From Lytechinus variegatus (taxonomy: Eukaryota > Echinodermata > Echinoidea > Temnopleuroida > Toxopneustidae): a stretch of DNA of 64,000 nucleotides. The stretch is from positions 71,197,856 to 71,261,855 of the forward strand of contig NC_054740.1 of NCBI RefSeq assembly GCF_018143015.1, read 5' to 3'. Within the stretch, counting starts at the first letter, position 1, and every line of letters begins with the position of its first letter. The notes below the pieces were generated by a model. The model saw only the letters and a program-made list of their open reading frames with translations. It made no database searches and was not told the DNA's origin. This document shows, in pieces, positions 899-47,600 of the stretch. Made by a program: the position numbers and the translations under genes.

Positions 899-925
899 AT
901 CGGGTGAAAAGTTTACCGCATACCA
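899..925 (+). CDS. Gene A linker exon
   Basis: A 27-nt phase 1-1 exon after a clean TCTGCAG acceptor and before GTAAGTAT. It encodes about nine residues, DRVKSLPHT. It aligns with the linker exon of gene D at 45902-45955, including similar flanking intron; B and C have no counterpart. The small size makes it the least certain exon of gene A. Confidence 0.55.
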
Positions 926-2801
926 GTAAGTATAATAAATATACATTTCTAAACAAATACTAATTACCTTTCCATATAAAATACAACTAGTTCTGTTTTT
1001 GCAATATACTATACTACCTGAACTCTATCAATATTTCCGATTCTCTTACAGTTATTGATTACATATACTTATAAATGTTACATGTATCCTCGCTATAGTA
1101 ACTGGATATTGTTAATAAAATTAAATGCTGACACCGTCTATCAAGCGACTATTCTTTGACTGCATGTGACGACTAGCGTATAGATGGGGGGGGGGGGCTT
1201 GGGGCGCTCGCCCTCCCCCTAAAAAATCACGCCCATGAAAATAAAACTAAAAAGGATAAAAGGAAAGAGAGATGGATGAAATATATTATTTTTAGAATAT
1301 TATGTAAAAAAATCTATCACAATTTGATTTTTGTGATAAGAATGTTGAAACTTTTGCTCGCTCGCGTCGCTCGCATTAAAAAAAGATTGGCCTAATCGGC
1401 CATTATCTGGGTCCCTCAAAGTTTTTGGCTCATTACGCCACTGGTTACGATACACTTATTTCCAGATTCTAAGCAACAATCGTATATTTCATATGAATTT
1501 AAATACCTGTTTTACCTGTAGAAATTGTAATTATAATCTCATCAGTTGTCAAATAATCCGTAATATATTTTCCCCCATTGGTCCACTATTAGACGCCCTT
1601 ATCTTCAAGTGGGTAGCCATTATATCATCAACCATTTTGCTCCTGGTCATTCTTACCTGCGCGGTCCTAAAATATAAACGACGGAAAGAGACAACGCGTA
1701 ATGGCACGGTAAGATACAATTTTGTTGTTGTTGTTTTTACAATAGGACAGTTGTAATTTGATTGCTTTACGATTCGTTTTTATTATTGATATTCTAGAAA
1801 GGACATGTATGGTAGAAATTAGAACGAAGATACTGTGACTGCCATACATAACGTGCGCTAATACGATTCAGAAGTTCATTCTTTAAAATCAACAGTTCTA
1901 AATATATTGATGAAGAAAATATTGATAAATCTCAGCAGTTTGGTAAGATTTATGCATATTTATATTCATATATTTAAGAAAGAAGGAAAATGAATTTGAT
2001 CAATGCTAATTAAGGAGTCCAGAAATTGAAAAGGCCGCGATTCCAGGTTTAAGGAGAATGATTCCGTTTTCATTCAACAATATTTGTCGTTAATCTTTCC
2101 TTGGTTCTGTAATGTTTGCTGGTCTCAAAATATTCTTATGCTTTCATTATCTCCGACTACAATTGAACGAGAAAGAAAAGTTACATAATTTATATTTGTT
2201 TCACGTGTTTATGCTTACATCTTTTCACAACGAAACACACTAACTATGATGACGATATTTATCGAATTTTACACGAGGATTGAGTGATTTTATCCATTTG
2301 CCCAGTACATTTGTTTTCCATAACTCTTCTCCTTAGGACACTACGGCCAAATCAGACAGACTGCACAACATGCAAGACGAAGAACCTACGGGAGAACAAG
2401 AATCTTCCACTGACCCTGATTCTCTTCCTGGTAGACCGTATGAAACTATCCCTGAATACATTCTATCTCAATCCCATAGTCCTGTGACGGGACACTCTAA
2501 TTGCCCAGTATCTGGTCCTGACATAAACGAACGAGTAGATGAGTTTGGATACATGATTCCAGACAGAGACGACGGAGGAGAACTACCTGATGAACAATCA
2601 CCAGTCAGTCGGGATGGTTATTCAGATATCAATCACACATATTTGGATACAACCCTTTCTAGTAGTCAGCAAGAATATCCCCACACCTACCATACCTACG
2701 AAAGTTCTATGATGACGATGAAAAGCTTGGGAGAAAAGGATGAACAATTGTCGAGTCATTATTATAACATTGACAGCACTGACACTTCTAAGCGCTATTA
2801 A
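899..2801 (+). CDS. Gene A (3' part): CUB-family type I membrane receptor, linker, TM and tyrosine-rich tail
   Basis: Three exons of a gene whose signal peptide, CUB domains and stalk lie outside the window: linker 899-925, transmembrane exon 1593-1708, cytoplasmic tail exon 2337-2801. Joined, they give a short linker (DRVKSLPHT), a transmembrane segment (WVAIISTILLLVIL-like) followed by basic stop-transfer residues (KYKRRK), and a 154-residue tail ending TSKRY. The tail keeps the YETIPEY, GYMIP and NHTYLDT motifs of genes B and C. The linker exon resembles that of gene D, while the TM and tail resemble B and C, so gene A is a chimera of the two types. Splice donors GTAAG are clean. The TM acceptor used here (ATTAG at 1588-1592) is the only AG common to all three copies. 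The cytoplasmic tail probably signals through phosphotyrosine; that is inference. Confidence 0.8.
1180..1470. repeat. Dispersed repeat fragment with poly-G and CGCTCGC motifs
   Basis: Starts with a run of G and the stretch GGGGCGCTCGCCCTCCCCC, and contains GCTCGCTCGCGTCGCTCGC. It is not present in the corresponding intron of B, C or D. It lies exactly where gene A changes from D-like to B/C-like sequence. Family not recognised with certainty. Confidence 0.5.
1593..1708 (+). CDS. Gene A transmembrane exon
   Basis: Phase 1-0 exon encoding DALIFKWVAIIS..., a hydrophobic stretch of about 20 residues and a basic KYKRRKE stop-transfer segment, ending TRNGT before GTAAGA. It aligns with TM exons of B (13044-13156) and C (28437-28567). 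The upstream AG seen in B at 13030-13031 is replaced by TTGG here, so the downstream AG is the likely acceptor. Confidence 0.85.
2337..2801 (+). CDS. Gene A cytoplasmic tail exon (type 1)
   Basis: Phase-0 terminal exon following CTCCTTAG. It encodes 154 residues from DTTAKSDRLHN to DTSKRY and a TAA stop. Tyrosine motifs in order: YETIPEY, GYMIPDRD, DGYSDINHTYLDT, EYPHTYHTYES, SHYYN. All are kept in B and C, while spacer residues vary, which suggests constraint on the motifs. The HYYN site fits a Grb2-type YxN pattern; no strict ITAM or ITIM is present. Confidence 0.9.
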   Translation, partial: DTTAKSDRLHNMQDEEPTGEQESSTDPDSLPGRPYETIPEYILSQSHSPVTGHSNCPVSGPDINERVDEFGYMIPDRDDGGELPDEQSPVSRDGYSDINHTYLDTTLSSSQQEYPHTYHTYESSMMTMKSLGEKDEQLSSHYYNIDSTDTSKRY

Positions 2802-2840
2802 GAATCCCTCTGTCATGTCTGTATAGGGCCTAGTAGATTT

Positions 2841-5780: not shown

Positions 5781-5850
5781 GTAGATAGATAGAAAGATAG
5801 AGGGAGAGAGAGAGAGAGAGAGAGATAGAGAGGGAGAGGGGGAGAAGATG
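5781..5850. repeat. (GA)n / (GATA)n microsatellite
   Basis: Purine-rich simple repeat GATAGATAGAAAGATAGAGGGAGAG and onward. The same site carries differently sized GA tracts in the other blocks (about 20065-20120 and 32135-32300). Confidence 0.85.
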
Positions 5851-7159: not shown

Positions 7160-7263
7160 TTCAAATGTGCCATCTTTAGACAGCGTGTTTACCCTCGCTA
7201 TCCATGATCATTGATTGTGACGGTTTTCAGAGGCGAGAAACAAACCCAGCAAACTTCTTCTTA

Positions 7264-7271
7264 TCACGTGA
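7264..7271. promoter_or_regulatory. TCACGTGA palindrome upstream of gene B
   Basis: Perfect 8-bp E-box-type palindrome in the sequence CTTATCACGTGATC, about 0.6 kb upstream of the start codon. It is kept at the same relative place in C (21021-21028) and D (33282-33289). Binding of a bHLH-zip factor is inference; the whole surrounding block is also conserved, so selection on the site is not shown. Confidence 0.3.
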
Positions 7272-7893: not shown

Positions 7894-7978
7894 ATGAATT
7901 CTATCTGTGGAATTAGTTTTTGTATCCATTGCTGTTTGGGCCTTCTACTTTCCACTGAATTATGTGGCGCAGAACAAT
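7894..7978 (+). CDS. Gene B signal peptide exon
   Basis: Starts at ATG in GCCATGAATTC; encodes MNSICGISFCIHCC... with hydrophobic core CLGLLL and probable cleavage after CGA. It ends in phase 1 before GTGAGTAC. Upstream sequence is conserved with C and D, whose first exons start MISVRGI, supporting this start. Confidence 0.85.
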
Positions 7979-10900
7979 GTGAGTACGATAATTATTCTAC
8001 TTCCCAATTTCTTAATAATGTTTAAACAAACTAAATGTGATTGTTAAAGATTACTTGATAGACTAGTATTTATGTTCATTTACCCTACTCATTATGTCAC
8101 GCCGAAATGTATGAATTTCATGAACGGGGTAAATATATTATTACTTGATTACTCCCTTTATGATATTTTCCGTGTCTATTTTACGGATAGAACATGGAGT
8201 AACGGGAATATTATAACCCATTCATATACGCTGATATTTTAATATCCAATATGTTCATTGTATCGATATTTTTTTTTTTTAGGTTTTTAAATGACCAGTG
8301 CTCCTCAACGCATCTGTAGTGACTCGCTCCTCTGCTTTGTTTTGTTCCATCACCGTGCCCCCTTATATTCACTTGACTTTGCCGCAATTATTATTTTTTT
8401 ATCATAATGGCCTTTTTTGTGTGTGTATTCTCATTTCAGAAAAAAAGATACAATGAAGAATATATACATAAATGAGTACTAAGATACAAAATAGAAAATT
8501 AGAAATAATATCGTATGATCACTGGAGTTGGGGGTGGGGGATAGCCGATTCAGTGATGCTGATATAATATCAATTATCTATTGGGGTCGTGAAATCAATT
8601 GTATATTATGCACCAATATGTTTGTTTCTTTTGTATTGTGTTATTCTTATAAGAGCTACCAAACTATCAAGAAAGATAACTGACAGTCCTTTTCAGGACC
8701 TCAATTCTCTCCACCATGAAAACCTTTAAAGATTTTAAAGATCATCTTGTAGTTGTTCTTATTCATCCACTAAACATCAATATCTGGGAAATATTATACA
8801 TGTATATGAATGGAAAATCAATAAACCATATACAATTGGATAGGTTTACATTAAGGGCGCAGACTCTTGAAAACTAAAAACGTTTGCATAAGCATCATAA
8901 GTTTATCAATCCTGCAGTATTCTGTATCGGTTCCGATCTGTAAAAGAGCTATAAAATTTCGGTAAAATGGAGGAAGTATTATTGTAAAAATGCGGTATTG
9001 GTTGGGATAAACAAAATATGCGGTATAAAAGACTATATATATTTATAATTTTCTTTCGACGTTAAAGGAAAATTAAAGAGTTTTCATAAGAAAGATTTCG
9101 CATTTGGCATTTCTATCAATCTGCAAAATTCATTCTTAATGTACAATGAAAGTTTTTTTTTTACATTCACAATTATTTCATTCTTCTTTCATAGCTTATG
9201 TTTGGCTTACTGGCGATGAGAATTTCAATATTTTTTCACTTGATATAAACCGGAGCAATGAACAAGAGTTCTTTTGGATATTCAACACAACTATTGGCAG
9301 GAGGATCAATGTATCCATAAAAGAGTTTGACTTCGAAAGAGGACATGTTTTCATTACAATTGGTGATGGGACTGAAATAGATGGAGGTAACGCAAATTTT
9401 GACTCCACATCAACTTACACTCAAGTAGCAAGATTCAGTGGATCAGATCCACCAAGTTTAGTGACATCAGTAAGCAATGCAGCATGGATAAGAATTACAG
9501 CCAGGCGATTCTACTTGAAAATGGATTTTAATATAACCATATCGTCTACCAAAATGTCAGGTAAATCGATTTTTAATATTTCTTTAATGTTGTTAACGTA
9601 GGTTATGGTTTGAAATAAATTTGTTATTTTAGTTTTATCAATGTACACGATTTGTTGATATTTTATTCTTCATATTACTATTCATAACAAGTTATTGCAA
9701 TCAATATATATCATTCGTTTCTTGGCAAGGACATTAAATGGATATAAGGACAAATATGCTGCACAACCGAACTGTGATGAGTTCAATAATATTTATCAAG
9801 TGCATCAACCTAAGTATTAAAAATTAATATTACGAAGTACAAATCGAAAAGAAAATTGCGTACATACATAATCAAGAAAATGGAGCTACATATACATAGA
9901 AAACTAAAAAGAGGTTTGTTTAACAAATTTTCGGCATTACTCCTATTTGTTTAAGATCAGTATGCTCGATCTGTAATGAAAATCATAAGATCAGTATGCT
10001 CGATCTGTATGAAAATCATAAATCATATGTCAGAAAAAATTGGAACCAGTGGGTTTCGAACCTGCCATCTACTGCTTTCCGGGCAGCGACTCAACCACCA
10101 GGCTATTCTGGTTCACGGCTAAGCCACGATAAACTGGAATTCAAATACCCTCGATCCTGTTCTTTCTGACTCTTAATTTATTATAAAAAGAGGTTGTATA
10201 GAATCACCATGTAGAAATAAAGGTAGAAAATGACAGACAAATGCAACATTATCTAAATTCAATTTTTCATCAGATATAATTGAATTACAAGAGGGTGATA
10301 CGATATCGCTCAGATCAATGCCTAACCCGTCAAATTACCCAAACAACGACTATTATCTATGGGATATCCGAACACACAAAGGCTACGTCATCGAAGTTAT
10401 TGTAAGATCATTCGACGTGGAAAACGGGCACGACCACGTGTACATAGGTGATGGCGTTGATAGCTTTACAAACCAAGGATTAAAATGGCGAGACTGGACA
10501 GGATTATGGGTGAATGAGGTCCTAGAATCACAAGACTTCATATCATCTACCAATTCTATCACCATGATCTTTACCACTGATTATAGCGCAACAAGATCAG
10601 GATTCTGGATCCAGCTACGAGTCGCTAAGAAACCAGGTTAATGACCTTATCACGTTTCTTGCTTATTTATATCAATTAAGATCTTTAGATATATATAACG
10701 GGTGGAATTCTAATATTTTTTTACTTAAATGATTACCTTAATGGAGTGCAGTTGTCAACTCATTCACCATTTAAAAACTATTCCAATCCTGCTTCAAGAA
10801 ACTGTACAAAGAATAATTGTGTCCCGAAATGAGAAAAAAGGAACAATTATGAAATAAATATGAATTTCCATTAGTCAATCGGTACATTCCATAAACTTGT

Positions 10901-13900
10901 AAATATCCTTATAAAGTCTATGGTTAAAGCTATAGCTTTAATTTTCAGAATGTCGGTGAAACGTTACATAATGATGAATATACACACTCTAGAAAGGTTT
11001 ACCCAATGCTGGGTAAAATGGGAACATGCATGTTGGTTGGTATATTTTTTATAAATTGTACGCAATGTTGCGTTGAAACATAGACCAATATGGGGCCAAA
11101 AATAACCCATCAAACATGCATGTTCTCTTTCTCTCCACACTCTAAAAACACTGAGTAAAATTCTACCCAATATTGAGTAAAAAGGGAACATGCATGTTTG
11201 CTGGGTATTTTTTCACCCCATATTGGGCTATTTCAACACATCTTTTTACCCAACCAGCATGCATGTTCCCAATTAACCCAATATTGTGTAAACCTTTTTT
11301 AGAGTGCAATATTGGGTAAATTCTACTCAGTTGAAGACCCGAATTCTGAAGTCAGGTTTGAATTGAAACCTGATTAAAAGGTATGGTTAAATATGGAGAG
11401 CAAATGGGGCGCAAATCCAATATATCGACACATTTGACACTCAAATATTGTTCATTGTCTGGGAATGATAACTGAAGTACTTAGAAATATAACATAATGT
11501 TTGAATTTTTGGCTCCTCATAATTTTTGCACAGGATCAGACTGTGGTCCATTTAAACCGGACTTCATAATACGGGCCATAGAGTGTAACAATGACAACTA
11601 TTACTCATCTGAATTCTCAAATAGAGGTCGTTGATCACAAAATATTTCTATAAATTCTTAAATTCAGGAATGTTATGGATTCCGTCATGATTGAAATGCA
11701 AAGACAACATACAAAGCTGAGTATAAAAAATATTTTGAATGTTAGCAGGGCTACACGGTTGACGCCATTTTCGAATTCCCACGGATGATAACCCTGGGGG
11801 GGGGGCGTTTCATCAATATTTTCGTTTGACAAGTTGTCAGATCTGACAACTTAGTTTCCTGGGTTCTGATTGGTTGAGAAGCACTGTTACTATTGTAAAT
11901 GTCGAATAAAACAGGACTTGTCGGATAAAACATCCGACAAGTCCTTTCATGAAACGCTCCCCGGTTCCTAAAATTTCAATGCAATTTAACAATCTAACAA
12001 ATTTCTTTATAGCATAAGTGGCTAACCTTTTCCGCGATGAAAGATTTATAGATTAAGTAACTAGGAACATTATGTAACTTACCGTCAGTACTTCTTTATA
12101 TCATTGATATCATCTCGAGGGTATGAATTGTACATCAATGGTTAATGGATATTAAAGTTACAGACATTTTTATTCGATGTACGGCTAGTGACACCTTTCT
12201 TTATATTACGCACGACAAAATAAATTTTCATTTGAGGTTTACTGATTATTTAAAAGAACAACAATAAAAACAAAAGTATACATAATCATTTTTCTGTTTT
12301 GGAAGGACCATCACCTGTTGTTGGCTTGAAACTATGTTTTATTCTTAAACGCAGCAGCAGCAGCAGCAATAACAACAACAACAACAACAACAACAGCATC
12401 ACCATTAGCAGCAGCACTACCACCAACAACAACATCAAATGCGAGCACAACCCACGAAGATCCCGTTTCATCATCCTCATCACTTATAATTCCAACGGGT
12501 ACGTTACACTTTCAAATGAATGCATTTTTTATATTTTATTTAATCTAATGGCACTTTATCAAACTATATAGAATCTACTTTTGACACTTCCTATCTAGAT
12601 GAAAATTGTGTAGTATTTGGAAAGAAACTCTTAATCCAAATGAAAGTCAAGATTGAGGTATATACTAGCAGGTATATACTAGCAATAATCAGACAGGTGC
12701 CTTTAGTATATTCTCTTGCTTCAAAATAGACTTACCTCCAGTGCCATTACCTACATTACAATTTCAAATTCATTTATGTGTATGATCTTCATATGAATGG
12801 ACTACCCCCTCAATTTCTCTGTCAGGATGTTGGAAGAAAATCCACCATTCTGAACTGAGATTTAGAATTTCCCTGACTATCATAGAGATGAATACAGTAG
12901 AATGGAAACACTAAACATGATAAAACAGTAAACGACCTTGATTGCGTCAGCAATTTTGTACTTTCTGATGTTTTTTGATGGTAAACAGAATTTCACCTTA
13001 TCACTAAATAATCTTTTTTCCCCCCCATTAGGTCCAATATCAGACGCCCTTATGTTCAAGTGGGTAGCCATTATATCATCCATTTTGCTCCTGGCCATTC
13101 TTACCTGCGCGGTCCTAACATATAAACGACGGAAACAGACAACACGTAATGGCACGGTAATATACAATTTTGTTGTTGTTGTTGTTTTTACAATAGGACA
13201 GCTGTAATTTGATTGCGTTACGATTTGTTTTTATTATTGATATTCTAGAAAGGACATGTAAGGTAGAAATTAGAACGAAGATACTGTGACTGCCATACAT
13301 AACGTGCGCTAATACGATTCAGAAGTTCATTCTTTAAAATCAACAGTTCTAAATATTTTGATGAAGAAAATATTGTTTGATAATATTTATGCAGATTTAT
13401 ATTTAAATACTTAAGAAAGAAAATGAATCTGATCAATGCTAATTAAGGAATCCGGAAATTGAAAAGGTCGATTCCATGTTTAAGGAGAATGATTCCGTTT
13501 TTATTCAACAATATTTGTCGTTAATCTTTCCTTGGTTCTGTAATGTTTGCTGGTCTCAAAATATTCTTATGCTTTCATTATCTCCGACTAAAATTGAACG
13601 ATTTAGAAAAGTTACATAATTAGGTGATCTGTCAATCGACAGATCAACTATTAATTTCGTACGAATTTTCTTTATTTTTTATTTTTCCGCCCTTTTCTTG
13701 TTAGCACAAAATCTCCAAATCTACATCATCAATTATCTTCAAAATATCATCAGATATGGGGACCTATCATGTGATGTGTATAAAGCAAGTTCAAGGTCAA
13801 AAGGTCATCATGACGTCATCTAGACGCCATTTTGTAAAATCACATTATCAATCATATCTTCATTATCAATTATCAAAAATTAACAATATTTACATCACAT

Positions 13901-15953: not shown

Positions 15954-17070
15954 GATTTTTTTTTTCGTTTTGCATCTGCGACGGAAACATTCAATATGCG
16001 TTTCGTGTGCAAAATTCTGGTTGCTACTATGGTAACAGCGATTTATCCGATTGAGGACGACTTTCCAAAGCCACATTTGACTCCTCCTAGAGCTCGAGAG
16101 GCCGCCCGGGGGGCCCACTTCCATTGATTAGTGGATACCAGTAGCGACCACCCGTAAAAGGGGACAGAGTGGGCAGGTTCGTTACGTATATAGGCCTATG
16201 TAACGTTATAAGGGTGTCAAAACGATGTTTAAAATGCTGAAATAAGGGATATATATTCAATACTTGTAGGGTTTCACAAGCCAAATACTTGTTAAGAGAT
16301 GCATTTTCATAATCTGGAAAAGAATTGCTTCCCTTGTTTAGCATGTTTAGGGTACTTTTCGAAACCCCATGGTCGTGCCTGGTATCCACTCATCAATGGA
16401 AGTGGTCCCCCCGGAATTTGAATCTAATCCCCATTTCTGGGGAATGTAAAACATAATGCCCCTCACATCGTGTGCGAGAGGCATATCGTTTGTGTATAAG
16501 GAGTAAACAAAAGAAACAAAGAAACAAAAGAAACAAAAGGAAACGAGTTCAAAGGTATCGCATATGATGTGTACATATCAACGCATGCGAAATGTTCGGC
16601 TGGAGAGGTTGATCTTATCCATGAAATCAATTGCCAGTGATCCACCAATAATCCGCATTAAATGTAATATCGATTCGATGGACTGTAATGATCTATATTT
16701 AAGCCTTCATTCAGTAAGTTTTTCCTCACTCAATATGTTCTCGATTTGTTTGAAAAACCACTTTCTTCTCCATGTCATAAATCTATTTTAGGTCCTGCAT
16801 TTTGAATATCTCCAGCCATCAGTCGTAATATACATGCATGTATGCGGTACGGGTGTCGCGGAAAGGGATTTTGCACACGAAAAGCAGATTTGTAGGGCCT
16901 GTAACCCCCTGTTACACAAAACTTAGCATTGATCGTATAGCAGTTTTCTACGTTTGATTCTATTGACTGTAATGCACAATCAATCTTAAAAATCAAGTGT
17001 ATGATTAAGCGTTAACTTTTGTGTTAGGGGACCCTAATACTAGCGTCCGTGATGATTGCGAAAGGTCCCA
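15831..17070. mobile_element. TIR DNA transposon (non-autonomous) inside the last exon of gene B
   Basis: Relative to A and C, 1240 bp are inserted between TATAACACT and GACAGCACTGAC. The ends share GACCTTTCG and pair imperfectly over about 35 bp (left CCCGACCTTTCG, right complement TGGGACCTTTCG; both continue to GGACGCT). The triplet ACT is duplicated (15828-15830 and 17071-17073). No transposase is seen. Superfamily uncertain; a 3-bp target duplication fits PIF/Harbinger or CACTA-like elements. Confidence 0.75.
16106..16414. mobile_element. MITE nested in the gene B insertion
   Basis: Near-perfect inverted ends of about 35 bp: CCGGGGGGCCCACTTCC at left and the complement of GGAAGTGGTCCCCCCGG at right, continuing through ATTGAT and AGTGGATACCA. 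Length 309 bp. It lies wholly within the 15831-17070 element, so it inserted later or was carried in. Confidence 0.8.
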
Positions 17071-17073
17071 ACT

Positions 17074-17103
17074 GACAGCACTGACACTTCTAAGCGCTAT
17101 TAA
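17074..17103 (+). pseudogene. Displaced ancestral C-terminal codons of gene B
   Basis: Encodes DSTDTSKRY and a stop, identical in sense to the end of gene A and close to gene C. It is now cut off from the coding sequence by the upstream stop within the inserted element, and is probably 3' UTR. Confidence 0.8.
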
Positions 17104-21643: not shown

Positions 21644-21728
21644 ATGATTTCTGTCCGTGGAATTAGTTTTTGTATCCATTGCTGTTTGGGCCTTCTACTT
21701 TCCACTGAATTATGTGGCGCAGAACAAT
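21644..21728 (+). CDS. Gene C signal peptide exon
   Basis: Encodes MISVRGISFCIHCC then a CLGLLL core and CGAEQ, ending phase 1 before GTGAGTAC. Differs from B mainly in the first five residues. Confidence 0.87.
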
Positions 21729-33912: not shown

Positions 33913-33997
33913 ATGATTTCTGTCCGTGGAATTATTTTTTGTATCCATTGCTGTTTGGGTCTTATACTTTCCACTGAATTATGTGGCGCAGAACCAC
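33913..33997 (+). CDS. Gene D signal peptide exon
   Basis: Encodes MISVRGIIFCIHCC then CLGLILS and CGAEP, ending phase 1 before GTGAGTAG. Closest to gene C. Confidence 0.87.
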
Positions 33998-36900
33998 GTG
34001 AGTAGAATGATTTGTCTACCTCCTGAATTTCTTATAACAGTAATAAAATAACCTGCCATGTTTTACATAGTCAGAAGTTTGCCTCGTGGCAAAGACATAC
34101 TATTTAATAATCTTTGCGAAGGAAGAGTAATATATACATCCACTAAATGAGCAACTCCATTTTAGACATACTAAATCTGATTATTAAAGAGTTATGAATT
34201 ATTTAATTCATTCTTAATAGATGTACTTTAAGTGTTTTTCATATCCACGATTCTTATTCTCCTTTCATAGCTTATGTTTGGCTTACTGGCGATGAACAGT
34301 ATAATATTTCATCAGTTGATATAGACCAGATCATTGAAGAGAACTTCATTTTGATTTTCAACACAACGATTCGCCATAGAATTAGATTCTCCATTTTAGA
34401 TTTTGATTTCGAATTCGGCTATATGTTCATGAGCATTGGTGATGGGACTGAAATAGATGGAGCTGATGTGCTCTTTGAGGAATCATCAACTTACACTGAG
34501 TTAGCAAGCTTCAGTGGATCAGATTCGCCAAGTGTTGTGACATCAGTAAGCAACTCAGCATGGATGAAACTCACAAACATCAAAACCTATCAAAGGAAAA
34601 TGGATTTCAATGTAACTGTCTCGTGTACCAATATATCAGGTAAATATGTTTAAATTCACTTGCTGTATTTTTTAATGAGACTAGATTGCTTTGTTTTAAT
34701 ATGATTTGAATGTCCATTGGGTTTATCGTATTAAAAATAACGGTTTATCGATTTACTTTTATATTCAATGTGACTGCTTCTTATATTCTTCCTTGTCTGG
34801 GATGATAAGAGAAATGGATCGATCGTGTTCATGGATATATGTATACATCATAGAACTATGTAGAACGCTAAAAAGAAGTTGTTTTAGAATCAACATTGAT
34901 CTAGAGAGGGAGAAAATGAGTTGACAGACAAATGACACCTGACTATACAGTGCGTATCAAAAAAAAGTTTACACTTTGAAAAAGCCCTGGGAATTAAAAA
35001 ATATACAACATGTGGGTAATTTTTTCACATATAATTATGGGTTTGGGTCTCATCTATCCAATGAAAGTAAAAGTTTTGACAGAATGTTATACTTGAGTGA
35101 GCACTGTCCATTTTTGTAAAGCTCGCAGAAATCTGTTTGCGCAGAAATGCTCGTTTTCACGCTGTGTCTAGGGGAAAGGGCGAAATCAAACTTACCCTGC
35201 AAAGCATTTCTCATAAATTTCCCTAGCACTTTTAGCCAATTGAAATAAACGGATACATTCAAGCATTTTGTAACAATTTTGCCGCCCAAATTTGAAATTT
35301 CAACACTTAGCAAGCACAACCTTTACCCTTTTTGTGCCAGCTGGATCTGAGGACATAACTGAATCTGAACAAAAGTTTATATCAGACATCTCCAGCATTT
35401 TTCACTAAGTTTTTATCATTTAAAGTTGGTTTACATTTCATTTTCATTTAATACTTGTTTCTCCACACTTTTTCTAAGCTTGGAAATGATTAACAAAATG
35501 AAAATCAAGCCTAAGCCATTTCATGTAAATCACAGCTCAGTGTAAAGCAAATATCGTCACGATGGCCTCGGTGTGTGGGGGAGTGGGATGGAGCGCAATG
35601 CACTCTTCGAAGTGTTTTGGGCAAGGAAACAAGTTTAAAAAGGTCAAAGATATCTTCAAATCAATTTTACTTGCTAATTTCCACGTGTTCTTCATGATTA
35701 AGGTCTACTTTTATTCGCATAACTATTTCAAAGTTCTGCGCAAATCATTTTTCACTAACTTTTCAAAAGTAAGTGGTGCTCACTCAAGCGGAAATATTTT
35801 TTGACATTTATATCGTCATTTGCTAAAATGGATCTGGACCAATGTTAAAATGTGAAAAAATCTTCAGGATATTACAAATGTATAATTTTATAGGATATTT
35901 TCTAAGTGTAAACTTTTTTTTGATACGCACTGTATATCCTTTATTTAGTACGAAAGTGTTGTGTGTATTGTATAAGTTGTCATCGTTTAGTATGCGCTTT
36001 GAGTGTCACATTCGATTAATATGTGCGATTATGCATTTTAAATTTCATAGTAGTAATAATAATAAAGACAATGATAATAATAACAGTAAGAATAGTACAT
36101 TCTTAAAACAAATCAGTCAAATTGACTAGACCATAGTCAGCTGGGTGCAACTGATAATCTAGTCACATTTCTGACATATATTCTAGAGAAATAACTCTGT
36201 TCTAGTAAAGTACGACTAGAAAATAGTCAAATATGATTAGAATAACATTTGAACCCAGCTGATCCTATTTACTAGTTATTTTGACTGATTTTTGACTGAC
36301 GATATACTTAGTGTATAGTAGTAGTAATAATCCTTACTATAATTTGGCTAATCTTGTGTGTCCTTCCGTTTGTTTGAAGCACGTTTTCTCCGTGGTTTTC
36401 CACTCAATGGAGCTGGAATTTTTTCTAAACATGGTTAAATTGTTCACAGATTGTCATGACGGGGGTTGTTTGTGGTATTTTGGTCGCATTATTTAAAGTT
36501 TTTTTACAATTCGTAACTTTTTGGCATTCCTTTTCGCCGCCCTGAATATAGCTTTGAAATTCCCAGTCCCTTTTACCTCTCTCGGGTCAGCGAAATACAA
36601 AGCACGGTATACGGTACGTACTTACACTCATGCGCTGGCTGCATGTATATATGCATGTGTAGCGCTGCTGAAACGTAAACAACATACCGTAATCGGCCGA
36701 TGTCCTCAGTGGTTACCGTACAAAATGTAAGCAGTTGTCACAAAGAGGTTAACCCTATTCTGACTTGGCCTTTTGAAAACAAGTGTTGACTGGGGGTTTG
36801 CTGGGGGGTGAGGGTCTACATCTAATGTTTCTGCCCAGTTTCATTAACACATCCTTTGTATTTAATCCTATATTTTAACAGATTGGGCTACCTGCTACTC

Positions 36901-39900: not shown

Positions 39901-42900
39901 GACTTTCCTAAAGTTTGGTATCTTTTTTTATTAAATTTTATTAATTAATTCCCATTGGCATATGGCTTCATGCATAAATAACTGCTAATTTACATAAATT
40001 AGCATATTTTTGCATGAAGATGCAATTTTCAACACCATGTCCTGTGGGAAAAATTAAAGCTATTGACCTGATAAAGACTTTCCTAAAGTTTGGTATCTTT
40101 TTATTAACTTTTATTAATTAATTCCCATTGGCATATGGCTTCATGCATAAATTACTAATTTACATAAATTAGCATATTTTTGCATGAAGATGCAATTTTC
40201 AACACCATGTCCCGTGGGAAAAATTAAAGCTATTGACCTGATAGAGACTTTCCTAAAGTTTGGTATCTTTTTTTGAAAAACTTTTATTAATTAATTCCTA
40301 ATGGCATATGGCTTCATGCATAAATAATGCTAATTTGCATAAATAAGCATATTTTTGCATGAAGATGCAATTTTCAACACCATGTTCTGTGGGAAAAAAT
40401 GAAGCTATTGACCTAATAGTGACATAGGGAAAGTTTGGTGCTTTTGTAAACTCTGTCCCCAAAACTTCAAATTTAAGGCTTAAGGCCCCTGACTAACAGT
40501 GCATGGTTAGTATTTTGACGTAAAATGTAATATTTATATTGAATGATTGATGCCGCAGTAAATCTAAATTCCAACATGTGATGAAGTTGTTTGGTTGAGT
40601 CAGATAATCAACTCAGTGCTAAGTTCCAAAACCCAAAATTAAAATTGTCTTAAATAGATTTGCTATTAACCCTTTTATTTAAAGGCAAATTTGATCAGAT
40701 TTTCTTCTGCAAATTGGCAACACTGGCATTTTTTTTGCTACACATATTTTGTTTGACATGTATTCTACAAAACTCTGTTGTACATATGTAGATGTTTATT
40801 AAAAATGTAGATATGAATAATACAGTGTAAAAATGGTTTATCGCTTCAACAGCCAATACCGTGTATAACAGACATACGGGACCTTATGCATTATGCCATC
40901 TCAAATATTATGATCTTTTCATCTGTATACTGTTGTAGCATATCTTGCCTTTAATTAACATGATATTTTTATGAAAAAAGACATAATCTAACATACACGT
41001 ATCAATATTGTTATTTATTTGAATAAAATTATAATCAGTGAAGATGCCCATATAACTTTTAAAAGACACAATAATTCCATACTACATTTACAGTGAACTT
41101 TCTAAGATTTTTATCAATTATTTCAATGCATAACTATTTGATCTACCAGTAAAAAAAAAATATCTAAAACCTCTAAAAAAAATTAAAATGCCCATGTAAG
41201 CCATACAAATCTTATCTTTTTATCACAATTAACATCTAAAATCTTTTCTCTCTCTCTCTCTCTATCTCGCTCTTTTGTATTCTTTAATTTCTCTATCTCT
41301 CTCTTCATCTCTCTCTCTGATTTTCCCAATGTCTCTCTCATTTTCCCCACTATCTCTCTCTCATTCATTTTCCCCGTGTGGGTCTCTTTCATTTTCCCCT
41401 CTGTCTCTCATTTTTCCCATTCTCTGTCTCTCATTTTCCTCACTGTCTGTCTGACTCATTTTTCCCACCACTGTTTCTGTCTCACTCATTTTATCACCCC
41501 CCCCCCCTTTCTCTCACTCTCACTTCTTTTCGACATCCTGCCATACTTATATATGATTGAGCAACCTTTAATTTAAAAATTACAAACAACTGCAGTCTAA
41601 TGTGCATTGTAAGGTACATGTGCAATGTACTTACATATTTATTTCCGACCCAATACATGTAATCATAACATTTCTATATCACAATAATTGCCTCTTGACT
41701 GCTTACTGAATACACCGTGTTCTAATACATTTTTCCATTTTATAGTTAGATTTGGATTTCACTCTGTAATGATTATTGAAGTTCTTCCTCCAGTTCAACC
41801 CAAGATGCTTAACTTAATTGAACCTCCTATCTATATTGAAAGAGAAGTCTGCTATAAATCAGTTGTCTAAATATATTTCATCAATAAACTGCTCGGCTTT
41901 CAGTGTAAATAGGCAGTCTAGCTGTACATACAAGAATGTCACCCCCTCCCCTCCCCCCACACACTTTGATAACGAAAAATGACTCATACCCCCTGTGCTG
42001 CCACGGGTAATTGCTGCTAGTAATAATAATCTGCTTTTATATAGCGCTTGATACATCGGAACGACGTGTCTAAGCACTTTACAAATATATCATTACCCCT
42101 GTCATCGGATTCAATCAGTCATTCCGCACACAATGTGTGCACATCCTCCACTCCCTGGGGAGTATTCCAGTCAGTCGCCGGTGAGGCGCACACAGTACTG
42201 GACAAGCTACAATGACTTTCACATCCTACCGGGTACCCATTTAGCACCTGGTTCGAGAGTGGCAAAGTGTGGATTAACGCCTTGCCAAAGGACGCCAGAC
42301 CGTGGTGGGATTCGAACACACGACCCTCTGTTTACAAGGCGAGAGTCAGAACCACTACACCACGGCTTCTCCACGTAGTAGCAGCAGTAATGATAATGAT
42401 AATAATAACGATGATAACAATAAAAATAAATGTAAAAATGATAATGGCAATTATCATTAGCCCTATTATTAGTAATATTATTACTGCTGCTAGTACTACT
42501 ACTATCATTCTTCTTCTTCTTATTATTATTCATTATTATTGTCCATTTTCCATCAGACATTACTGAAGTAAATGAGGTTGAAACGACATTGATCAGGTCA
42601 ATGAATTACCCGTCAAATTACCCAAACAACTATTATCGTCTGTGGGTTATCCGAACACACGAAGGCTACGTCATCGAAGTTACCGTAAGATCATTTGACG
42701 TGGAAAACGGGAACGACCACGTGTACATAGGTGATGGCGTTGATAGCTTTACAAACCAAGGATCAAGATGGCGAGACTGGACAGGATTATGGGAGAATGA
42801 GGTCCTAGAATCACGAGACTTCACATCATCTACCAATTCAGTCACCATGATCTTTACCACTGATCATAGCTCAAGAAAATCAGGGTTCTGGATCCAATTG

Positions 42901-45900
42901 CGAGCTGCTAAGAAACCAGGTTAATAACGCTTTATATACAATTGTTTTCAATATTCTTATTTTCGGAGATTTTTCATAACAGAGCAGTGTTTGATAACAA
43001 AAAGTTTTGTAAAGTTTCACTTTTTTGGAAGATAAAAATCAACTCTAAATATTGTATTATATTTGCTGTTTTCATGATTAGCTGGATAATGGGTTATTTC
43101 AAGTACGGTTTTCGGTGTTGGTGTCGAGAGCGTGAAAAGGCTGCTGAACCGAGCTCCAACACCGAGCTGAGTTCAGAGGAGCGATATCGATCGCGTTTCC
43201 GATAGCCTATGACGTCAAGCCTCTGCGCTGCTGATCATCTCAATTTTACGCGAGAAATTCTCGACGACGAAAGTGAAATCGGGAAGATATTGCAATAAAA
43301 TCATATCGTACAAAATGCAAAGGTTAAAATCACTGGAAGAATGAGAAATCATAAATATCATTTTTCATAAAAATGTATAAAACTCTAATGATTTGCGCCC
43401 ATCTTAACTGCAAAAAAAAAAAAAAATACGGGGATGTTTCCATCGTATTCGCCGCCTTATCGTGAGCGACAGTTCATCAACACCAACGCCAACACCGAAC
43501 TTGAAATCACGATTTTCCCAATCCTGGGGGTTGGTGTTGCTGAAAGGGTAAATTACAGGTTGACTGTACGTCTTCATGGGACGGTCCTCTCCTGAAGACG
43601 GACAGTCAACCTGTGCGAAACGTCGAGTCTCTCTACTACTCATCTCTACTCACCGACTCAAGCCAGCATCTCCTCATCAGCTCTACTACTCTTGAAAGCT
43701 GTTCTCACTCAACATTCCTTCTGGTTTACAGTCCTTTTCAGGAATACTTTCAAGAAAGAATACTCTACTCTCAAATCTCCACTTTCTCGCTTATATCCAT
43801 TTCTTCTCTTCTTCTATCCACTGTTTCTATAACACTCCAACACTCCACATGGTGTACCGTAAACCACATCAGCAATTGTACATGCCACCATACATACCTT
43901 CAAACAACATCTTTCATACAACAGTTAAAGATACAATATGACTTTCGGCCCAAAAATCACACGAACATTTTTATCTTAATAGAAAACACGAGTGTTAGAG
44001 GCTTACTAAAATGATTTGCCCCTTAATTGCAAAAACAATGCTGTAAATTTATTTCTAAAATATAGTTATCATTCTAGTGATGAAAAAAAAAATCATCTTG
44101 GGCAAGAGACTTTGAACTATTTTGATCGTTTAGGCCTTGAATTGATTATATTATGTTCAATATGACCGAGAAATTATTTAAAAGGCTTTAAATTTTAAAA
44201 AGGGAAAAATATTGATTTTGTAAAGTAAAGCTAATTACGTTTCATCGGCTGGTATCAAGCATGTTTATTCGTATGTGAGAACAAAATAAGTGAAACATAA
44301 ATTTACCATATAAAAAATTATAATTACTTCATTGTAGTGGCAAGTACAGGAGTCAATGAAGGGTACAATATTCTTCATTATGTAACCCATTATTGAGTTA
44401 AATAAGGGGAAGTTTATCCTGACGAAAAGCTTGTTGCAAAAAAAAGACCCAAAATAATAACATTGGTGAATGTTTGAGGAAAATATATCAAAGACTATGA
44501 AAATTATTATAATTTTTAGTGTATTTGTTATGCCATAATTATGAGCATTTGCTTCATGCGTGATGTAATAAAAGACTTTATTTTGTCTCAGGAGCGATGC
44601 AATTTAATTGATCTTTTTACCATGCGATATACAGGAAACCTGCTCGCATATGACTTCACATATCAAAACATTAAAATTCGAATAACTTTTTGTTTTATTA
44701 GTCGATGGATTTTCATCAAACCTTCACCAATATTTTTCATAACTTCTTTATCTGCTATTTTACACAAAAAATGTGAGGGTGAACTTCCTAACACTTTAAT
44801 TGAACTTGTAAGAACAGTTGAAATTTGATATTCTAAGGCCACCGTGGGTTCCTGTGTATTATTTAGCTGAATATTTCATTTTTTTTCTTTCGAAAACCCC
44901 CTAATGTACCACACCCTAAAGATTAAAAGAAAAAAAATCTATATTTTTCAAAACCGCTTTGTGAGAACCATTACCTGGCTCTGTTGACAAGAGAAACGTG
45001 TTTCATTTTTTTACAACACAGCAAGCAGAACAGCATCATTTGCACCATCACCAGCCAGTGAAACGACAGCTAAACATTTTATTGTTTCATCAAACCTTTC
45101 ACCTATATCTCCGACAGGTATCCGTCATATTATACTTCTATCAATGCTTTTACAAATTAATAATAAAAAAGATATATTAAACCAGTTCTATGTGTACATC
45201 CATATTCAACCGAGATTTAGGTGGATAGAAGATATTTGAAAAGTAGTGAATTTAAATGCGAGAGCGCTTAAAATATGTTACTGAAGCCCATAGAAATTAC
45301 GAACACCCTTTTATTGAGCGAAGTAATAAAGCACAAAACTCAAGTCCTACCTTGACATGCTTGATAAAAATGGTGTAACGTTTTAGGCAGTATTGAATAG
45401 ATTAATTTCACGTTTACTCAAAACTTATTCAATTCGTTTAGGAGCACTCGGACGAAGTAATCTTGGTCTTATATTTCCAGCTAATAAGTTACGCTCATTT
45501 AAGAAAAAAAAACATATGAAGTATTGAAGCATTTGGACATGCATCTTAATGGTTGACAGATCTCTTATGCATATGCATTTGCATATTTTCTTGACATAAG
45601 ACAACATAGCTTTTCAACATTTGATATAAATTCATGCGAAAATTCTCTATCAAAGACAATGACAATAATGTCATAATTTATTTACACATTTTACAGAATG
45701 TAATTTAAGGAGTACCATCGCAAACTTTTCATATTTGGGTGCATGTTAAATGTTTAGTTTTCATGGCACTATGGTATCACTCTCGATGAATAATCTTAAA
45801 TGTTAGAAAACAACATTGAATTGTATCTGTAAATTTCAAACAACTTGATTACATTTGAAATTGTATCTGTGTTAAAAAAAGTCATGTACTTTTATCCGCA

Positions 45901-47600
45901 GATCGGGAAACAAGTCCATCGCATAATAATACACCCCATACACAAATTCCTGCAAGTAAGTAAAATAAATGTATATCAATATCACATGCAAATTACCTTT
46001 CCATATAAAATACAATTAATTATGATCTTCGGAAGACTAAATCTACCTAAACTCTAACAATATTTCTGATCTTTCTACTATTATTGATTTCATGTGTCAT
46101 TAATGCTACATGTACCCTCGCCATGATCGCTCGTTAACTGGATAATTTAATGCTGACACCGTATTACCAACAATGTTTATATTATTTCAACACATTCTAT
46201 GCATAAATTAGATATTTCAGATTGAAATAAGGTATCTTTCTATTACCTTTAGAAATAACTATAACCTCAACGGTTGTCATGGCTGCTTTGGTCATCTTGA
46301 TGATATTCTTTGGCACCAAATGGTATCATCTTCGGCGGTAAGTATATATAACCCCGTAAAAAATAAAGATTCAAATCATTTTTAACCACTCTTTTATTAT
46401 TGCAGCATAAATGCATAAAAAAGAGGAAATTGATATTTTGACATCCAACCTTGATCGCATTTATAAGATCATCATAAGGGGAAAGGTGTGTTGCAGTCTT
46501 GAATAAAGATCAATCCCATCGACGATATAACATGAAGTGAATTATATAACAACGTTGGATTAACTATCAGCAAATTAAAGGCGATTAAAATGTGGGAGCT
46601 ATTTCACAAGGCAGGATTATCTCATCGTTAAAGGGTAATTGAGTAATTTAAATTTATCCCGTCTCAAAATACATTAAAATACTAAGGTGTCACAACTGAA
46701 GGTAGGTCAATGATTAAGAATTCATGCATAAAAGTCAAATCAAATTCTGTAATTGTAACAGAATTTGTCAAAAGACTGTCCAGGTCTCGTAGATGATGAT
46801 AAATACATGAAATAGGGAACGAGGTTAGATCGAAACATGTTAGACACTATTAAACGGTTATCGATTTATGTCGTATCTTTTTTATCTTCAGAAGAAACCA
46901 GATTCTACTTAGATCTCAAGCTGTTTTCACCTCTCAAGAGTACTTTACCTTAGACCCTGACATGATCCAAGAAGAAACCGGTCCTTTCCAAGACCTGGAA
47001 CAACACACTATTCGTTATGCCGCAGATGGTCCCATTAATCATGTTTACAATTCAATTGGTGATTTGCCAACGGATGGTATTGACAGACCAACTAGACTGG
47101 GAACCTTCACCGGGGCTCGTCGTGATCTTAGTCTACCCCCTCTTCCGATAAACGCTGATCGAACCGACCTAGCGATAACTTCTAATGTTGACCGAATGAT
47201 ACCAGAGGATTGCAGTGGTTTATCTCTAGCAGAAGATATGGATGGTGCCATCCAAAGTCACGTTATAAAAGCTAATGGCGTGGCCCAAGAAACTACCAGT
47301 GGGAACAACTGCAGGAAGCCAAATCAAAAGGTTGCAATTGAAGGCCATCATTACCAAGCGTCTGATGATAATTTGTACATGGAGACGAGGACAGACGAGT
47401 GTCGGATGAGCTTCGAGCACCCTGGGCAAGAAGAAGGATGTCTGGCATCTTCATCATCACGTCACAATACAGTCTCTTCAAATGAGGAGGGGAAGCAAAG
47501 TAAAACCAATAATATATTCGTTGATGAAGATGGTGGTTCTGGAGAAATAATGGTAGATAACATTTTATATAGACCATGCACCTTCAATAGTCGTTTATGA
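33913..47600 (+). CDS. Gene D: two-CUB-domain membrane receptor with a different TM/tail module
   Basis: Seven exons: 33913-33997 signal peptide, 34271-34639 CUB1, 42557-42919 CUB2, 45022-45117 stalk, 45902-45955 linker, 46253-46337 TM, 46892-47600 tail. Phases 1,1,1,1,1,2 match at each junction and give about 586 residues. The ectodomain is homologous to B and C (CUB2 very close, CUB1 more diverged). The TM and the 236-residue tail are unrelated to those of A-C, and the TM/tail intron is phase 2 instead of 0. The tail has six tyrosines (EYFTL, RYAAD, VYNSI, HHYQ, NLYMET, ILYRPC) and an LPPLP motif of WW-ligand type. The CUB1-CUB2 intron is enlarged to 7.9 kb by transposons. This could be a signalling counterpart of the A-C receptors; no ligand is known. 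Confidence 0.82.
34271..34639 (+). CDS. Gene D CUB1 exon
   Basis: Phase 1-1, 123 codons. CUB-like landmarks FDFEFGYMFMSIGDG and SFSGSDSPSVVTSVSN. One codon longer than B and C near NIKTYQRK and clearly more diverged, mostly in the N-terminal third. One cysteine appears near the end (VSCTNIS). Confidence 0.9.
34948..35932. mobile_element. Non-autonomous Tc1/mariner-type element
   Basis: Perfect inverted ends of about 29 bp starting CAGTGCGTATC and running through an A-tract to GTTTACACTT, flanked by TA on both sides (34946-34947 and 35933-35934). Length 985 bp. I find no transposase-like reading frame, so it depends on a partner element. It lies in the CUB1-CUB2 intron of gene D. Confidence 0.85.
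36111..36290. mobile_element. Short MITE, AATCAGTCAAA type
   Basis: Ends AATCAGTCAAATTGACTAG and the complement of CTAGTTATTTTGACTGATT; both arms continue to CAGCTGGG. About 180 bp. Confidence 0.65.
37649..38125. repeat. Foldback with arms of about 97 bp
   Basis: Left arm 37649-37746 and right arm 38029-38125 are inverted copies, sharing TTTTAAACCGAGGGACAAGC and ACTATGCATAGGAGACAC. The loop is about 280 bp. It is probably a separate MITE inserted in the larger TIR element. Confidence 0.75.
38390..39100. repeat. CCGAAT-rich imperfect inverted repeat
   Basis: Dense CCGAATC and GAATTCGG motifs. Parts of 38390-38600 (AATTCCATCCGAATTC, GGCCACATTC) reappear inverted at 38940-39100. A 126-codon open frame here is a by-product of the GC-richer repeat and has no recognisable domain. 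Confidence 0.5.
39440..40450. repeat. Minisatellite, about six units of 170-178 bp
   Basis: Each unit contains CTTCATGCATAAATTACTGC, a TTTACATAAATTAGCAT block and CAACACCATGT. Units begin near 39450, 39622, 39793, 39971, 40144 and 40317. The first is the most diverged, which fits growth by slippage or unequal crossover from the right. Confidence 0.85.
41230..41530. repeat. TCTC pyrimidine-rich low-complexity tract
   Basis: CTCTCTCTCTC blocks interleaved with ATTTTCCCCACTGTCTCT-like units and a C-run. The open frames through it are compositional only. Confidence 0.85.
42005..42372 (-). mobile_element. tRNA-Thr-type SINE with GCGCTATATAAA tail
   Basis: On the minus strand: head GCCGTGGTGTAGTGGTTCTG (A box) and GTGTTCGAATCCCACC (B box) with a TGT anticodon-like loop, a body of about 250 bp, then the tail AAGCGCTATATAAAAGC followed by ATTATTATTA. 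This layout fits the widespread tRNA-derived SINEs that share a LINE tail. Complete or nearly so. Confidence 0.85.
42375..42545. repeat. Mixed AAT/AGC/TTC microsatellite
   Basis: TAGCAGCAGTAATGATAATG runs, AATAAAAATAAATG and TTCTTCTTCTTATTATTATT immediately upstream of the CUB2 acceptor of gene D. The polypyrimidine portion is close enough to influence that splice site. Confidence 0.75.
42557..42919 (+). CDS. Gene D CUB2 exon
   Basis: Phase 1-1, 121 codons. PSNYPNNYYRLWVI, GYVIEVTVRSFDVENG, DHVYIGDG, SSTNSVTMIFTTD, SGFWIQLRAAKKP. First 15 residues (DITEVNEVETTLI) differ from B and C; the rest is very close. No cysteine. Confidence 0.93.
43088..43550. mobile_element. Left part of the AACACC-rich TIR element (gene D)
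   Basis: Orthologous to 24793-25617 in gene C, with left end TTATTTCAAGTACGG kept. Lacks the SINE. Its right part is replaced from about 43551 by the palindrome-bearing segment. Confidence 0.5.
43555..43627 (+). other. 22-bp palindrome with hammerhead-like core
   Basis: Arms ACAGGTTGACTGTACG... and its complement TGAAGACGGACAGTCAACC enclose a 16-base loop (43555-43576, 43593-43614). The right arm and flank read CTGAAGA, a stem-loop closed by ACAG/CTGT, then CGAAAC and GTC, matching the order of conserved hammerhead ribozyme core blocks (CUGANGA, GAAA, UC). Stem III would be almost absent. Similar motifs are known at ends of Penelope-like elements. Activity is not established. Confidence 0.35.
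44404..44792. mobile_element. Palindromic MITE, AAGGGGAAAGTTCACC type (gene D)
   Basis: Same insertion as 26186-26577 in gene C, with better preserved right end (GAGGGTGAACTTCC) and slightly eroded left end (AAGGGGAAGTTTATCC). Confidence 0.7.
45022..45117 (+). CDS. Gene D stalk exon (Ser/Pro/Thr)
   Basis: Phase 1-1, 32 codons after ACAACACAG. ASRTASFAPSPASETTAKHF then IVSSNLSPISPT. Only a few residues differ from C stalk exon 1. The Ala/Thr repeat exon of B and C is absent here. Confidence 0.78.
45902..45955 (+). CDS. Gene D linker exon
   Basis: Phase 1-1, 18 codons between TTATCCGCAG and GTAAGTAAA. DRETSPSHNNTPHTQIPA. The homologous exon of gene A (899-925) is half as long. Strong splice signals support it. 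Confidence 0.7.
46253..46337 (+). CDS. Gene D transmembrane exon (type 2)
   Basis: Phase 1-2 exon after TATTACCTTTAG. KITITSTVVMAALVILMIFF then GTKWYHLRR: one TM helix with a short basic stop-transfer. No similarity to the TM exon of A-C apart from composition. Confidence 0.8.
46892..47600 (+). CDS. Gene D cytoplasmic tail exon (type 2)
   Basis: Terminal exon, phase 2, 236 codons including the stop. Starts RNQILLRSQAVFTSQEYFTL and ends DNILYRPCTFNSRL. Acidic and Ser-rich with six tyrosines (YFTL, YAAD, YNSI, YQAS, YMET, YRPC) and the proline motif SLPPLP. No catalytic domain recognised. It does not align with the type 1 tail. Confidence 0.85.

What the first reader, a model, noticed from the sequence alone, without database searches (positions are those of the whole stretch)
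899..47600. Tandem array of four CUB-domain membrane receptor genes with phosphotyrosine-type tails
Exons for signal peptide, two CUB domains, mucin-like stalk, TM and tyrosine-rich tail recur in order on the + strand in four copies. I do not recognise this architecture as a named family. Tandem receptor arrays with variable ectodomains and conserved tails are typical of recognition systems (inference).
Basis: partly seen in the sequence, partly recalled or inferred. Interest (0 to 1): 0.75.

Follow-up and report, generated by a model that had tools for sequence, protein, structure and literature searches.

The report
Sea urchin cysteine-free CUB receptor array
A sea urchin chromosome carries five copies in a row of a cell-surface receptor gene whose binding domains have almost no cysteines, although one of the two domains keeps the residues of a calcium-grip site, and the last copy has a different membrane anchor and tail, which makes this a plausible but untested recognition-receptor cluster.

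Summary
The array is real but differs from the description. It has five units, not four; U1 and the front of U2 lie upstream of the window. Each reads signal peptide, CUB1, CUB2, Ser/Thr-rich stalk, transmembrane (TM), tail, in phase-compatible GT-AG exons. U1, U3, U4 and U5 are open (511, 542, 533, 568 aa); U2 has a 16-base frameshift in CUB1.

U1-U4 share a tyrosine-rich tail of about 150 aa. U5 has its own TM exon and an unrelated 235-aa tail, with no other match in the genome. A repeated mobile element cuts U3's tail. U2 and U4 are mosaics: U5-like stalk segments joined to U1/U3-like TM and tail, though their CUB exons are not U5-like.

CUB1+CUB2 hold 0-1 cysteine in the four open units. 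CUB2 keeps the Glu/Asp/Asp calcium-site positions, as in all 13 sequences aligned. A related CUB gives 150 genome matches, their cysteines mostly unchecked.

No ITAM; tyrosine motif counts do not exceed shuffles. Most likely calcium-dependent type I recognition receptors; ligand, signalling and immune role are inferred. New variant of a known kind.

The parts
1593..1708 (+). U2 transmembrane exon (phase 1-0 in its homologs); U2 signal peptide, CUB1 (frameshifted), CUB2 and stalk exons lie upstream of the window
2337..2801 (+). U2 tyrosine-rich tail exon with stop (154 aa)
1456..1551 (+). stretch similar to the U5 TM exon acceptor and its first bases; similarity to U5 stops at 1551 and similarity to U1 starts at 1551: mosaic junction
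7894..7978 (+). U3 signal-peptide exon
9195..9560 (+). U3 CUB1 exon (no cysteine)
10274..10636 (+). U3 CUB2 exon (no cysteine; Glu/Asp/Asp positions kept by inspection of A2)
12355..12498 (+). U3 Thr/Ala-rich stalk exon B
13044..13156 (+). U3 transmembrane exon
15396..15953 (+). U3 tail exon; its end is read from the inserted element (about 40 new residues)
15830..17071 (+). mobile element inserted in the U3 tail exon; 46 other long matches in the genome (45 near full length, 1 partial); inverted ends GACCTTTCG / CGAAAGGTC
17074..17100 (+). stranded original end of the U3 tail (DSTDTSKRY)
21644..21728 (+). U4 signal-peptide exon
22958..23323 (+). U4 CUB1 exon (no cysteine)
24054..24416 (+). 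U4 CUB2 exon (no cysteine, Glu/Asp/Asp kept)
26802..26897 (+). U4 stalk exon A (also in U2 and U5)
27291..27332 (+). U4 mosaic junction: U5-like up to 27291, U1/U3-like from 27332/27458
27794..27901 (+). U4 stalk exon B (also in U1 and U3)
28437..28567 (+). U4 transmembrane exon
29202..29654 (+). U4 tyrosine-rich tail exon with stop (150 aa)
33913..33997 (+). U5 signal-peptide exon
34271..34639 (+). U5 CUB1 exon (the most divergent; one cysteine)
42557..42919 (+). U5 CUB2 exon (no cysteine, Glu/Asp/Asp kept)
45022..45117 (+). U5 stalk exon A
46253..46337 (+). U5-specific transmembrane exon, phase 1-2, different from the other TM exons
46892..47600 (+). U5-specific tail exon (235 aa after a split codon), one match in the genome (itself)

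Best explanation
A tandem array of five related type I membrane receptor genes in a sea urchin, four of them open and one (U2) frameshifted. SHOWN by sequence: layout signal peptide - CUB1 - CUB2 - Ser/Thr-rich stalk - one TM - cytoplasmic tail; CUB domains with 0-1 cysteine per pair; CUB2 with the Glu/Asp/Asp positions of calcium-binding CUBs, CUB1 without the last of them; two unrelated TM/tail types; U5-like stalk segments joined to U1/U3-like TM and tail in U2 and U4. INFERRED: CUB2 grips a basic side chain of an extracellular ligand through calcium, as C1s CUB1 does; CUB1 adjusts specificity or geometry; an O-glycosylated stalk holds the head off the membrane; the U1-U4 tail is tyrosine-phosphorylated and binds SH2 proteins, while U5 signals differently. 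Unequal crossing-over and gene conversion renew the copies and can move TM/tail modules between units, as in recognition-receptor families.
For: Phase-consistent gene models; hydrophobic segments only at the N-terminus and the TM in the four open models; CUB is the only Pfam family above its cut-off in joined U4 and U5; the profile of 13 CUB2-type sequences finds cubilin at E=1e-64, PCPE-1, neuropilins, MASPs and C1s in the PDB; acid triad in 13 of 13 rows; C1s CUB1 uses Glu45, Asp53 and Asp98 in calcium-dependent lysine binding (PMC4222235, passages); all tail tyrosines kept among U1-U4 apart from the last one in U3; CUB dN above tail dN at p<0.01 in 3 of 6 pairs; mosaic junctions at 1551 and 27291-27332; dispersed paralogs with a CUB pair, TM and other tails at C1 79.52 Mb and 78.94 Mb.
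Against: No expression, ligand or phosphorylation data and no structure model. No ITAM; no tyrosine motif class exceeds shuffles. Tail similarity to the 79.52 Mb paralog is not above shuffles apart from one hexamer. U2 is broken and U3 has a mobile element in its tail. dN/dS is 0.34-1.30 in the CUBs, and above 1 in many pairs of the short stalk and TM exons, compatible with weak constraint as well as diversification. In 3 of 6 pairs CUB and tail do not differ. CUB exons of U2 and U4 are closer to U1 and U3 than to U5, so an exchange of whole heads is not shown.
Confidence: 0.6

Rival explanations
1. Endocytic or developmental co-receptors (cubilin-, neuropilin- or NETO-like use of tandem CUBs) rather than signalling recognition receptors; the tyrosines mainly serve sorting (YxxPhi) or are incidental.
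For: Among the best PDB matches of the CUB2 profile are cubilin, PCPE-1 and neuropilin; 2-3 YxxPhi motifs in the U1, U3, U4 and U5 tails, not above shuffles; one dispersed paralog (78.94 Mb) has a Ser-rich tail with 6 Tyr in 337 residues.
Against: No NPxY motif in the tested tails and no extra Pfam domain above its cut-off in joined U4 and U5; copy-number growth and unit-specific tails are less usual for such co-receptors (general knowledge).
Confidence: 0.25
2. A mostly decaying tandem duplication: one functional gene plus degenerating copies, with no selected diversity.
For: U2 frameshift; mobile element in the U3 tail; dN/dS near or above 1 in several pairs.
Against: Four of five units are open over 6-7 exons; U4 versus U5 CUB1 shows dS 0.52 against dN 0.26, so constraint persisted; tail tyrosines conserved.
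Confidence: 0.12
3. Assembly artefact: uncollapsed haplotypes of fewer genes.
For: Other regions of this assembly give pairs of equal or similar hits at Mb-scale offsets (C2, C10, C16, C13).
Against: The units differ by mosaic 66-99% identity with different insertions, stalk exons and tails, not as two near-identical blocks.
Confidence: 0.05

Closest known systems
CDCP1 (CD318), vertebrate CUB receptor with tyrosine-phosphorylated tail
   Same: CUB ectodomain, one TM, tail with several tyrosines (PMC4395315, passages)
   Different: CDCP1 is 836 aa with three potential CUBs, five tail tyrosines and an ITAM-like pair; here two CUBs, 511-568 aa, no ITAM-like pair, and a tandem array. A sequence relation to CDCP1 was not tested.
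Calcium-binding CUBs of C1s/C1r/MASP and cubilin
   Same: CUB2 family keeps the Glu/Asp/Asp positions; strong profile match
   Different: Almost no cysteines here; membrane receptor instead of a complement protease or cubilin
NETO1/2 and neuropilins
   Same: Tandem CUBs at the N-terminus and one TM (recalled); neuropilins and NETO2 are among the PDB profile hits
   Different: No LDLa motif (regex in six frames of the 144-kb region, positive control in L061); no other Pfam domain above its cut-off in joined U4 and U5
ADAMTS13 CUB1-2
   Same: Precedent for a CUB domain that lacks one of the two disulfides (PMC8051872, passages)
   Different: ADAMTS13 CUBs also lack the calcium residues; here both disulfides are gone and the CUB2 site positions are kept
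Sea urchin SpTransformer (Sp185/333) and SRCR families
   Same: Multiplied sea urchin gene families (PMC8634487, abstract and outline; SRCR count in PMC5119243, passages)
   Different: Different proteins; SpTransformer proteins bind microbes (abstract), whereas this array has no functional evidence

Membership tests
CUB domain (PF00431) | Score above the curated cut-off of 21.4 bits | tested here: met
   CUB2 of U3, U4 and U5: 41.3, 49.6, 54.4 bits. CUB1: 22.4 (U3, above), 21.0 (U4, just below), no hit (U5); CUB1 is linked to the CUB2 family by profile comparison but finds PDB CUBs only weakly (best E=0.0067)
CUB domain (PF00431) | Four conserved cysteines forming two disulfides (recalled; describes both bonds in ADAMTS13 CUB1) | tested here: not met
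   0-1 cysteine over CUB1+CUB2 in U1, U3, U4 and U5
Calcium-binding CUB | Glu45/Asp53/Asp98-type acid triad | tested here: met
   CUB2 family: E or D, D, D in 13 of 13 rows chosen for A4, two of them from the window. CUB1 lacks the Asp98-type residue by inspection of A5
Calcium-binding CUB | Binds calcium | not testable with these tools
   needs protein
CDCP1 | ITAM-like YxxI/L pair and three CUBs | tested here: not met
   two CUB exons per unit; no ITAM match in the U1, U3, U4, U5 or 79.52 Mb paralog tails
NETO | LDLa module after the CUB pair (recalled) | tested here: not met
ITAM immunoreceptor | YxxL/I x6-12 YxxL/I | tested here: not met
   (U2 tail not tested)
Immune receptor family | Expression in coelomocytes and response to challenge | not testable with these tools
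   no RNA data

The most novel reading that the evidence does not exclude
Sea urchins have built a large class of disulfide-free, calcium-gripping CUB domains (many of the 150 related matches in this genome may belong to it) and use some of them in tandem recognition receptors whose stalk, membrane and tail modules are reassorted by recombination between units, so that similar ligand-binding heads are wired to different outputs.
Probability: 0.2. Interest if true: 0.75.

Novelty: new variant of a known kind. Interest (0 to 1): 0.5.

Why it matters
CUB domains are ligand-binding modules usually described as held by two disulfides. A class that dropped both yet kept the calcium-grip positions would be a natural test of what the fold needs, and might be easier to make in bacteria. 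An array in which a shared type of head is attached to different membrane anchors and tails offers a defined five-gene system to ask whether echinoderms diversify receptor output as well as specificity.

Tried and rejected
Rejected: a TM acceptor at AG|GTCC, because U2 and U4 lack that AG; AG|ACGCCC is present in all four. Rejected: the stops seen before CUB2 in U1 and U2 as pseudogene marks; in the models they lie in the intron. Rejected: homology of the U5 tail to the array tail or the 79.52 Mb tail; scores are not above shuffles. Rejected: ITAM or other SH2 motif enrichment. The 76.55 Mb CUB cluster is related in its domains, but one gene there is followed by an LDLa-like motif and an Fz domain, so it is another architecture. 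No Rfam hit at gathering threshold and no tRNA (ARAGORN, bacterial code) in the window. No Pfam hit at E<=0.01 for 10 other window ORFs of at least 100 aa.

The genome could not be searched with an alignment; one protein was used instead. No signal-peptide exon was found for the 79.52 Mb paralog. Paper searches (open-access PMC library only; I saw listings) showed no title or abstract describing this array or cysteine-free CUBs in echinoderms. One listed starfish coelomocyte paper (PMC13409769, passages) mentions CUB domains in an LDL receptor-related protein, not this family. Subscription papers are not covered. Searches were for comparison systems.
Full report
What the window is. The host genome has 869,567,369 bases in 33 contigs; the window is C1:71197856-71261855. 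Bindin (PF02084) matches at E=4e-66, so I take it for an echinoid; the species was not identified.

The array. A CUB1 probe has 10 genome matches, five of them in this region; a CUB2 probe has 54, five of them here; the tail probe has 4 matches, all here. Together they give five units on the + strand: U1 and the front of U2 upstream of the window, then the back of U2, and U3, U4 and U5 inside it. Exon models share their phases: signal peptide 0-1, CUB1 1-1, CUB2 1-1, stalk 1-1, TM 1-0, tail 0-stop, with GT-AG ends; U5 differs in TM (1-2) and tail. U1 (511 aa), U3 (542 aa), U4 (533 aa) and U5 (568 aa) are open from ATG to stop. U2 has a 16-base insertion in CUB1 that shifts the frame. Hydrophobic 19-mers occur only at the N-terminus and the TM in the four open models. 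In joined U4 and U5 only CUB passes its Pfam cut-off; a RIFIN match of 13.2 bits in U4 is far below its cut-off of 32.

Two tail types. U1-U4 share a tail of about 150 aa (12 Tyr in the 162 cytoplasmic residues of U1 and of U4). U5 uses another TM exon, 46253-46337, and another tail exon, 46892-47600, whose phases fit each other. This tail has one match in the whole genome, itself, and no similarity to the array tail or the 79.52 Mb tail above shuffles (332 of 500 and 419 of 500 shuffles reach its scores). In U3 a mobile element at 15830-17071 replaces the last nine or so residues by about 40 new ones. The element has 46 other long matches (45 near full length, one partial; 96-99% identical except one at 87%); only 40 of 3347 first-look candidates were scored, so this is a lower bound.

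Mosaics. U2 resembles U5 in stalk exon A, in the stretch 618-1137, and over 1456-1551, which includes the counterpart of the acceptor and first bases of the U5 TM exon. At 1551 the similarity to U5 stops and similarity to U1 begins and runs on through TM and tail. U4 resembles U5 in the introns behind CUB2 and through stalk A up to 27291 (90.8% over 25699-27291), and U1/U3 from 27332/27458 on; it therefore carries both stalk exons. The CUB exons do not follow this pattern: U2 and U4 CUB1 are 87-94% identical to each other, U1 and U3 but 76% to U5, and CUB2 of U2 and U4 is 91-96% against 89-90%. So modules from the stalk backwards have been joined in new ways; an exchange of whole heads is not shown, and the direction of each exchange is not determined. 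The stretch from TM exon to the next unit is 79-100% identical among U1-U4 in a patchwork that changes partner along its length (some windows had too little aligned), as expected from unequal crossing-over or gene conversion.

CUB domains. CUB2 passes the Pfam CUB cut-off in U3, U4 and U5; CUB1 is at the threshold in U3 (22.4 bits) and U4 (21.0 bits) and has no hit in U5. A CUB1 profile matches the CUB2-type profile at 98.4% probability but finds PDB chains only weakly (best E=0.0067). A profile of 13 CUB2-type sequences, two from the window, finds cubilin at E=1e-64, PCPE-1, neuropilins, MASPs, C1s and C1r. In its alignments to cubilin and PCPE-1 the cysteine next to the conserved Trp and the one before Gly are replaced here, and a short stretch holding a third cysteine is missing; the fourth, N-terminal one lies outside the alignment. 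The number of cysteines in CUB1+CUB2 is 1, 0, 0 and 1 in U1, U3, U4 and U5. The Glu, Asp and Asp positions corresponding to the calcium site are E/D, D, D in 13 of 13 rows. I chose these 13 from the fetched loci; the others were not put through this count. In C1s, Glu45 and Asp98 contact the ligand lysine and Asp53 is part of the calcium site (PMC4222235, passages). CUB1 lacks the last Asp (by inspection). ADAMTS13 CUB2 lacks one disulfide, and its CUBs lack the calcium residues (PMC8051872, passages). I know of no CUB described without any disulfide, but my literature search covered open-access papers only.

How common are such CUBs here? Outside the array, searches gave loci for 18 distinct exons (20 loci, two of them repeats of the same exon); 16 have no cysteine in the matched stretch and 2 have one. 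The other 34 matches were not read, and the probe itself is cysteine-free, so the sample is biased. Of the eight best Pfam CUB hits of the genome, six have 2-4 cysteines in their matches, several of which are partial, one has 1 and one has 0. A search with one cysteine-free CUB from C1:76.68 Mb gave 150 matches on 12 contigs, all at E<=2.3e-6, out of 331 candidates of which 150 were scored; five are the CUB2 exons of this array, and most were not checked for cysteines. One gene of the 76.55 Mb cluster is followed by an Fz domain (E=3e-13) and an LDLa-like motif, so this CUB class occurs in more than one architecture.

Paralogs. At C1 79.52 Mb (minus strand) lie CUB1, CUB2, a stalk candidate, TM and a 334-aa tail, for which exons with the same phases as in U1-U4 can be chosen among several possible donors; no signal-peptide exon was found. 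Its tail shares VDEFGY and HTYL with the array tail. A shared 6-mer arises in 79 of 20,000 shuffles, but the best local alignment is matched by 132 of 500 shuffles and the comparison was chosen after seeing the motif. At 78.94 Mb another locus has a CUB2-like exon, a CUB1-like frame, a TM frame and a Ser-rich tail frame with 6 Tyr in 337 residues; its exons were not modelled. The array thus looks like a local expansion of an older dispersed receptor type with variable tails.

Selection. Pairwise dN/dS is 0.34-1.30 in the CUBs and 0.22-0.81 in the tail; in the short stalk and TM exons many pairs exceed 1 on few changes. CUB dN exceeds tail dN at p<0.01, uncorrected, in 3 of 6 pairs (U1-U3, U1-U2, U2-U3) and not in the other 3 (U1-U4, U3-U4, U2-U4, the last with the tail higher); for pairs with U2 only CUB2 was used, and U5 was left out because its tail differs. 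Tail dS is low in some pairs (0.038 for U1-U2), so conversion may explain part of it. I do not claim positive selection.

Tail motifs. In the U1, U3, U4, U5 and 79.52 Mb tails I found no ITAM. Counts of ITIM, YxxP, YxN, YxxPhi and YxxQ matches are not above shuffled tails (lowest fraction 0.086). Tyrosine richness and conservation are real; phosphorylation is inferred.

Verdict. Most likely these are calcium-dependent type I recognition receptors whose stalk, TM and tail modules reassort; the ligand, the signalling and an immune role remain untested.

Noticed in passing
C1:76551001-76678001 (L061 and one search matches): Another tandem cluster of CUB exons, cysteine-free where read; in one gene CUB exons are followed by an LDLa-like motif and a Frizzled domain (Fz E=3e-13), and several groups of exons repeat with nearly equal scores.
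   Followed up: partly
C2 5.58-5.68 / 8.31-8.42 Mb, C10 2.1 / 2.7 Mb, C16 26.7 / 28.9 Mb, C13 18.6 / 24.9 Mb (bindin): Pairs of CUB or bindin hits with equal or similar scores at Mb-scale offsets suggest duplicated blocks or uncollapsed haplotypes in the assembly.
   Followed up: no
window 15830-17071: 1.24-kb element with inverted ends and internal inverted stretches; 46 other long matches at 96-99% identity except one at 87%, so probably recently active.
   Followed up: partly
window 39413-40444: Tandem repeat of a 175-base unit (4-6 copies) inside the long U5 intron between CUB1 and CUB2.
   Followed up: no
window 63076-64000: Tandem repeat with 153-192-base units running to the end of the window.
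   Followed up: no
C1:78.943-78.948 Mb (L055/L056, minus strand): Receptor-like locus with CUB1-like and CUB2-like frames, TM and a Ser-rich tail frame; a further tail type on the same chromosome.
   Followed up: partly
C17:19.24-19.39 Mb: Dense cluster of related CUB matches (34 of the 150 rows); the one exon read there (L008) has no cysteine.
   Followed up: no
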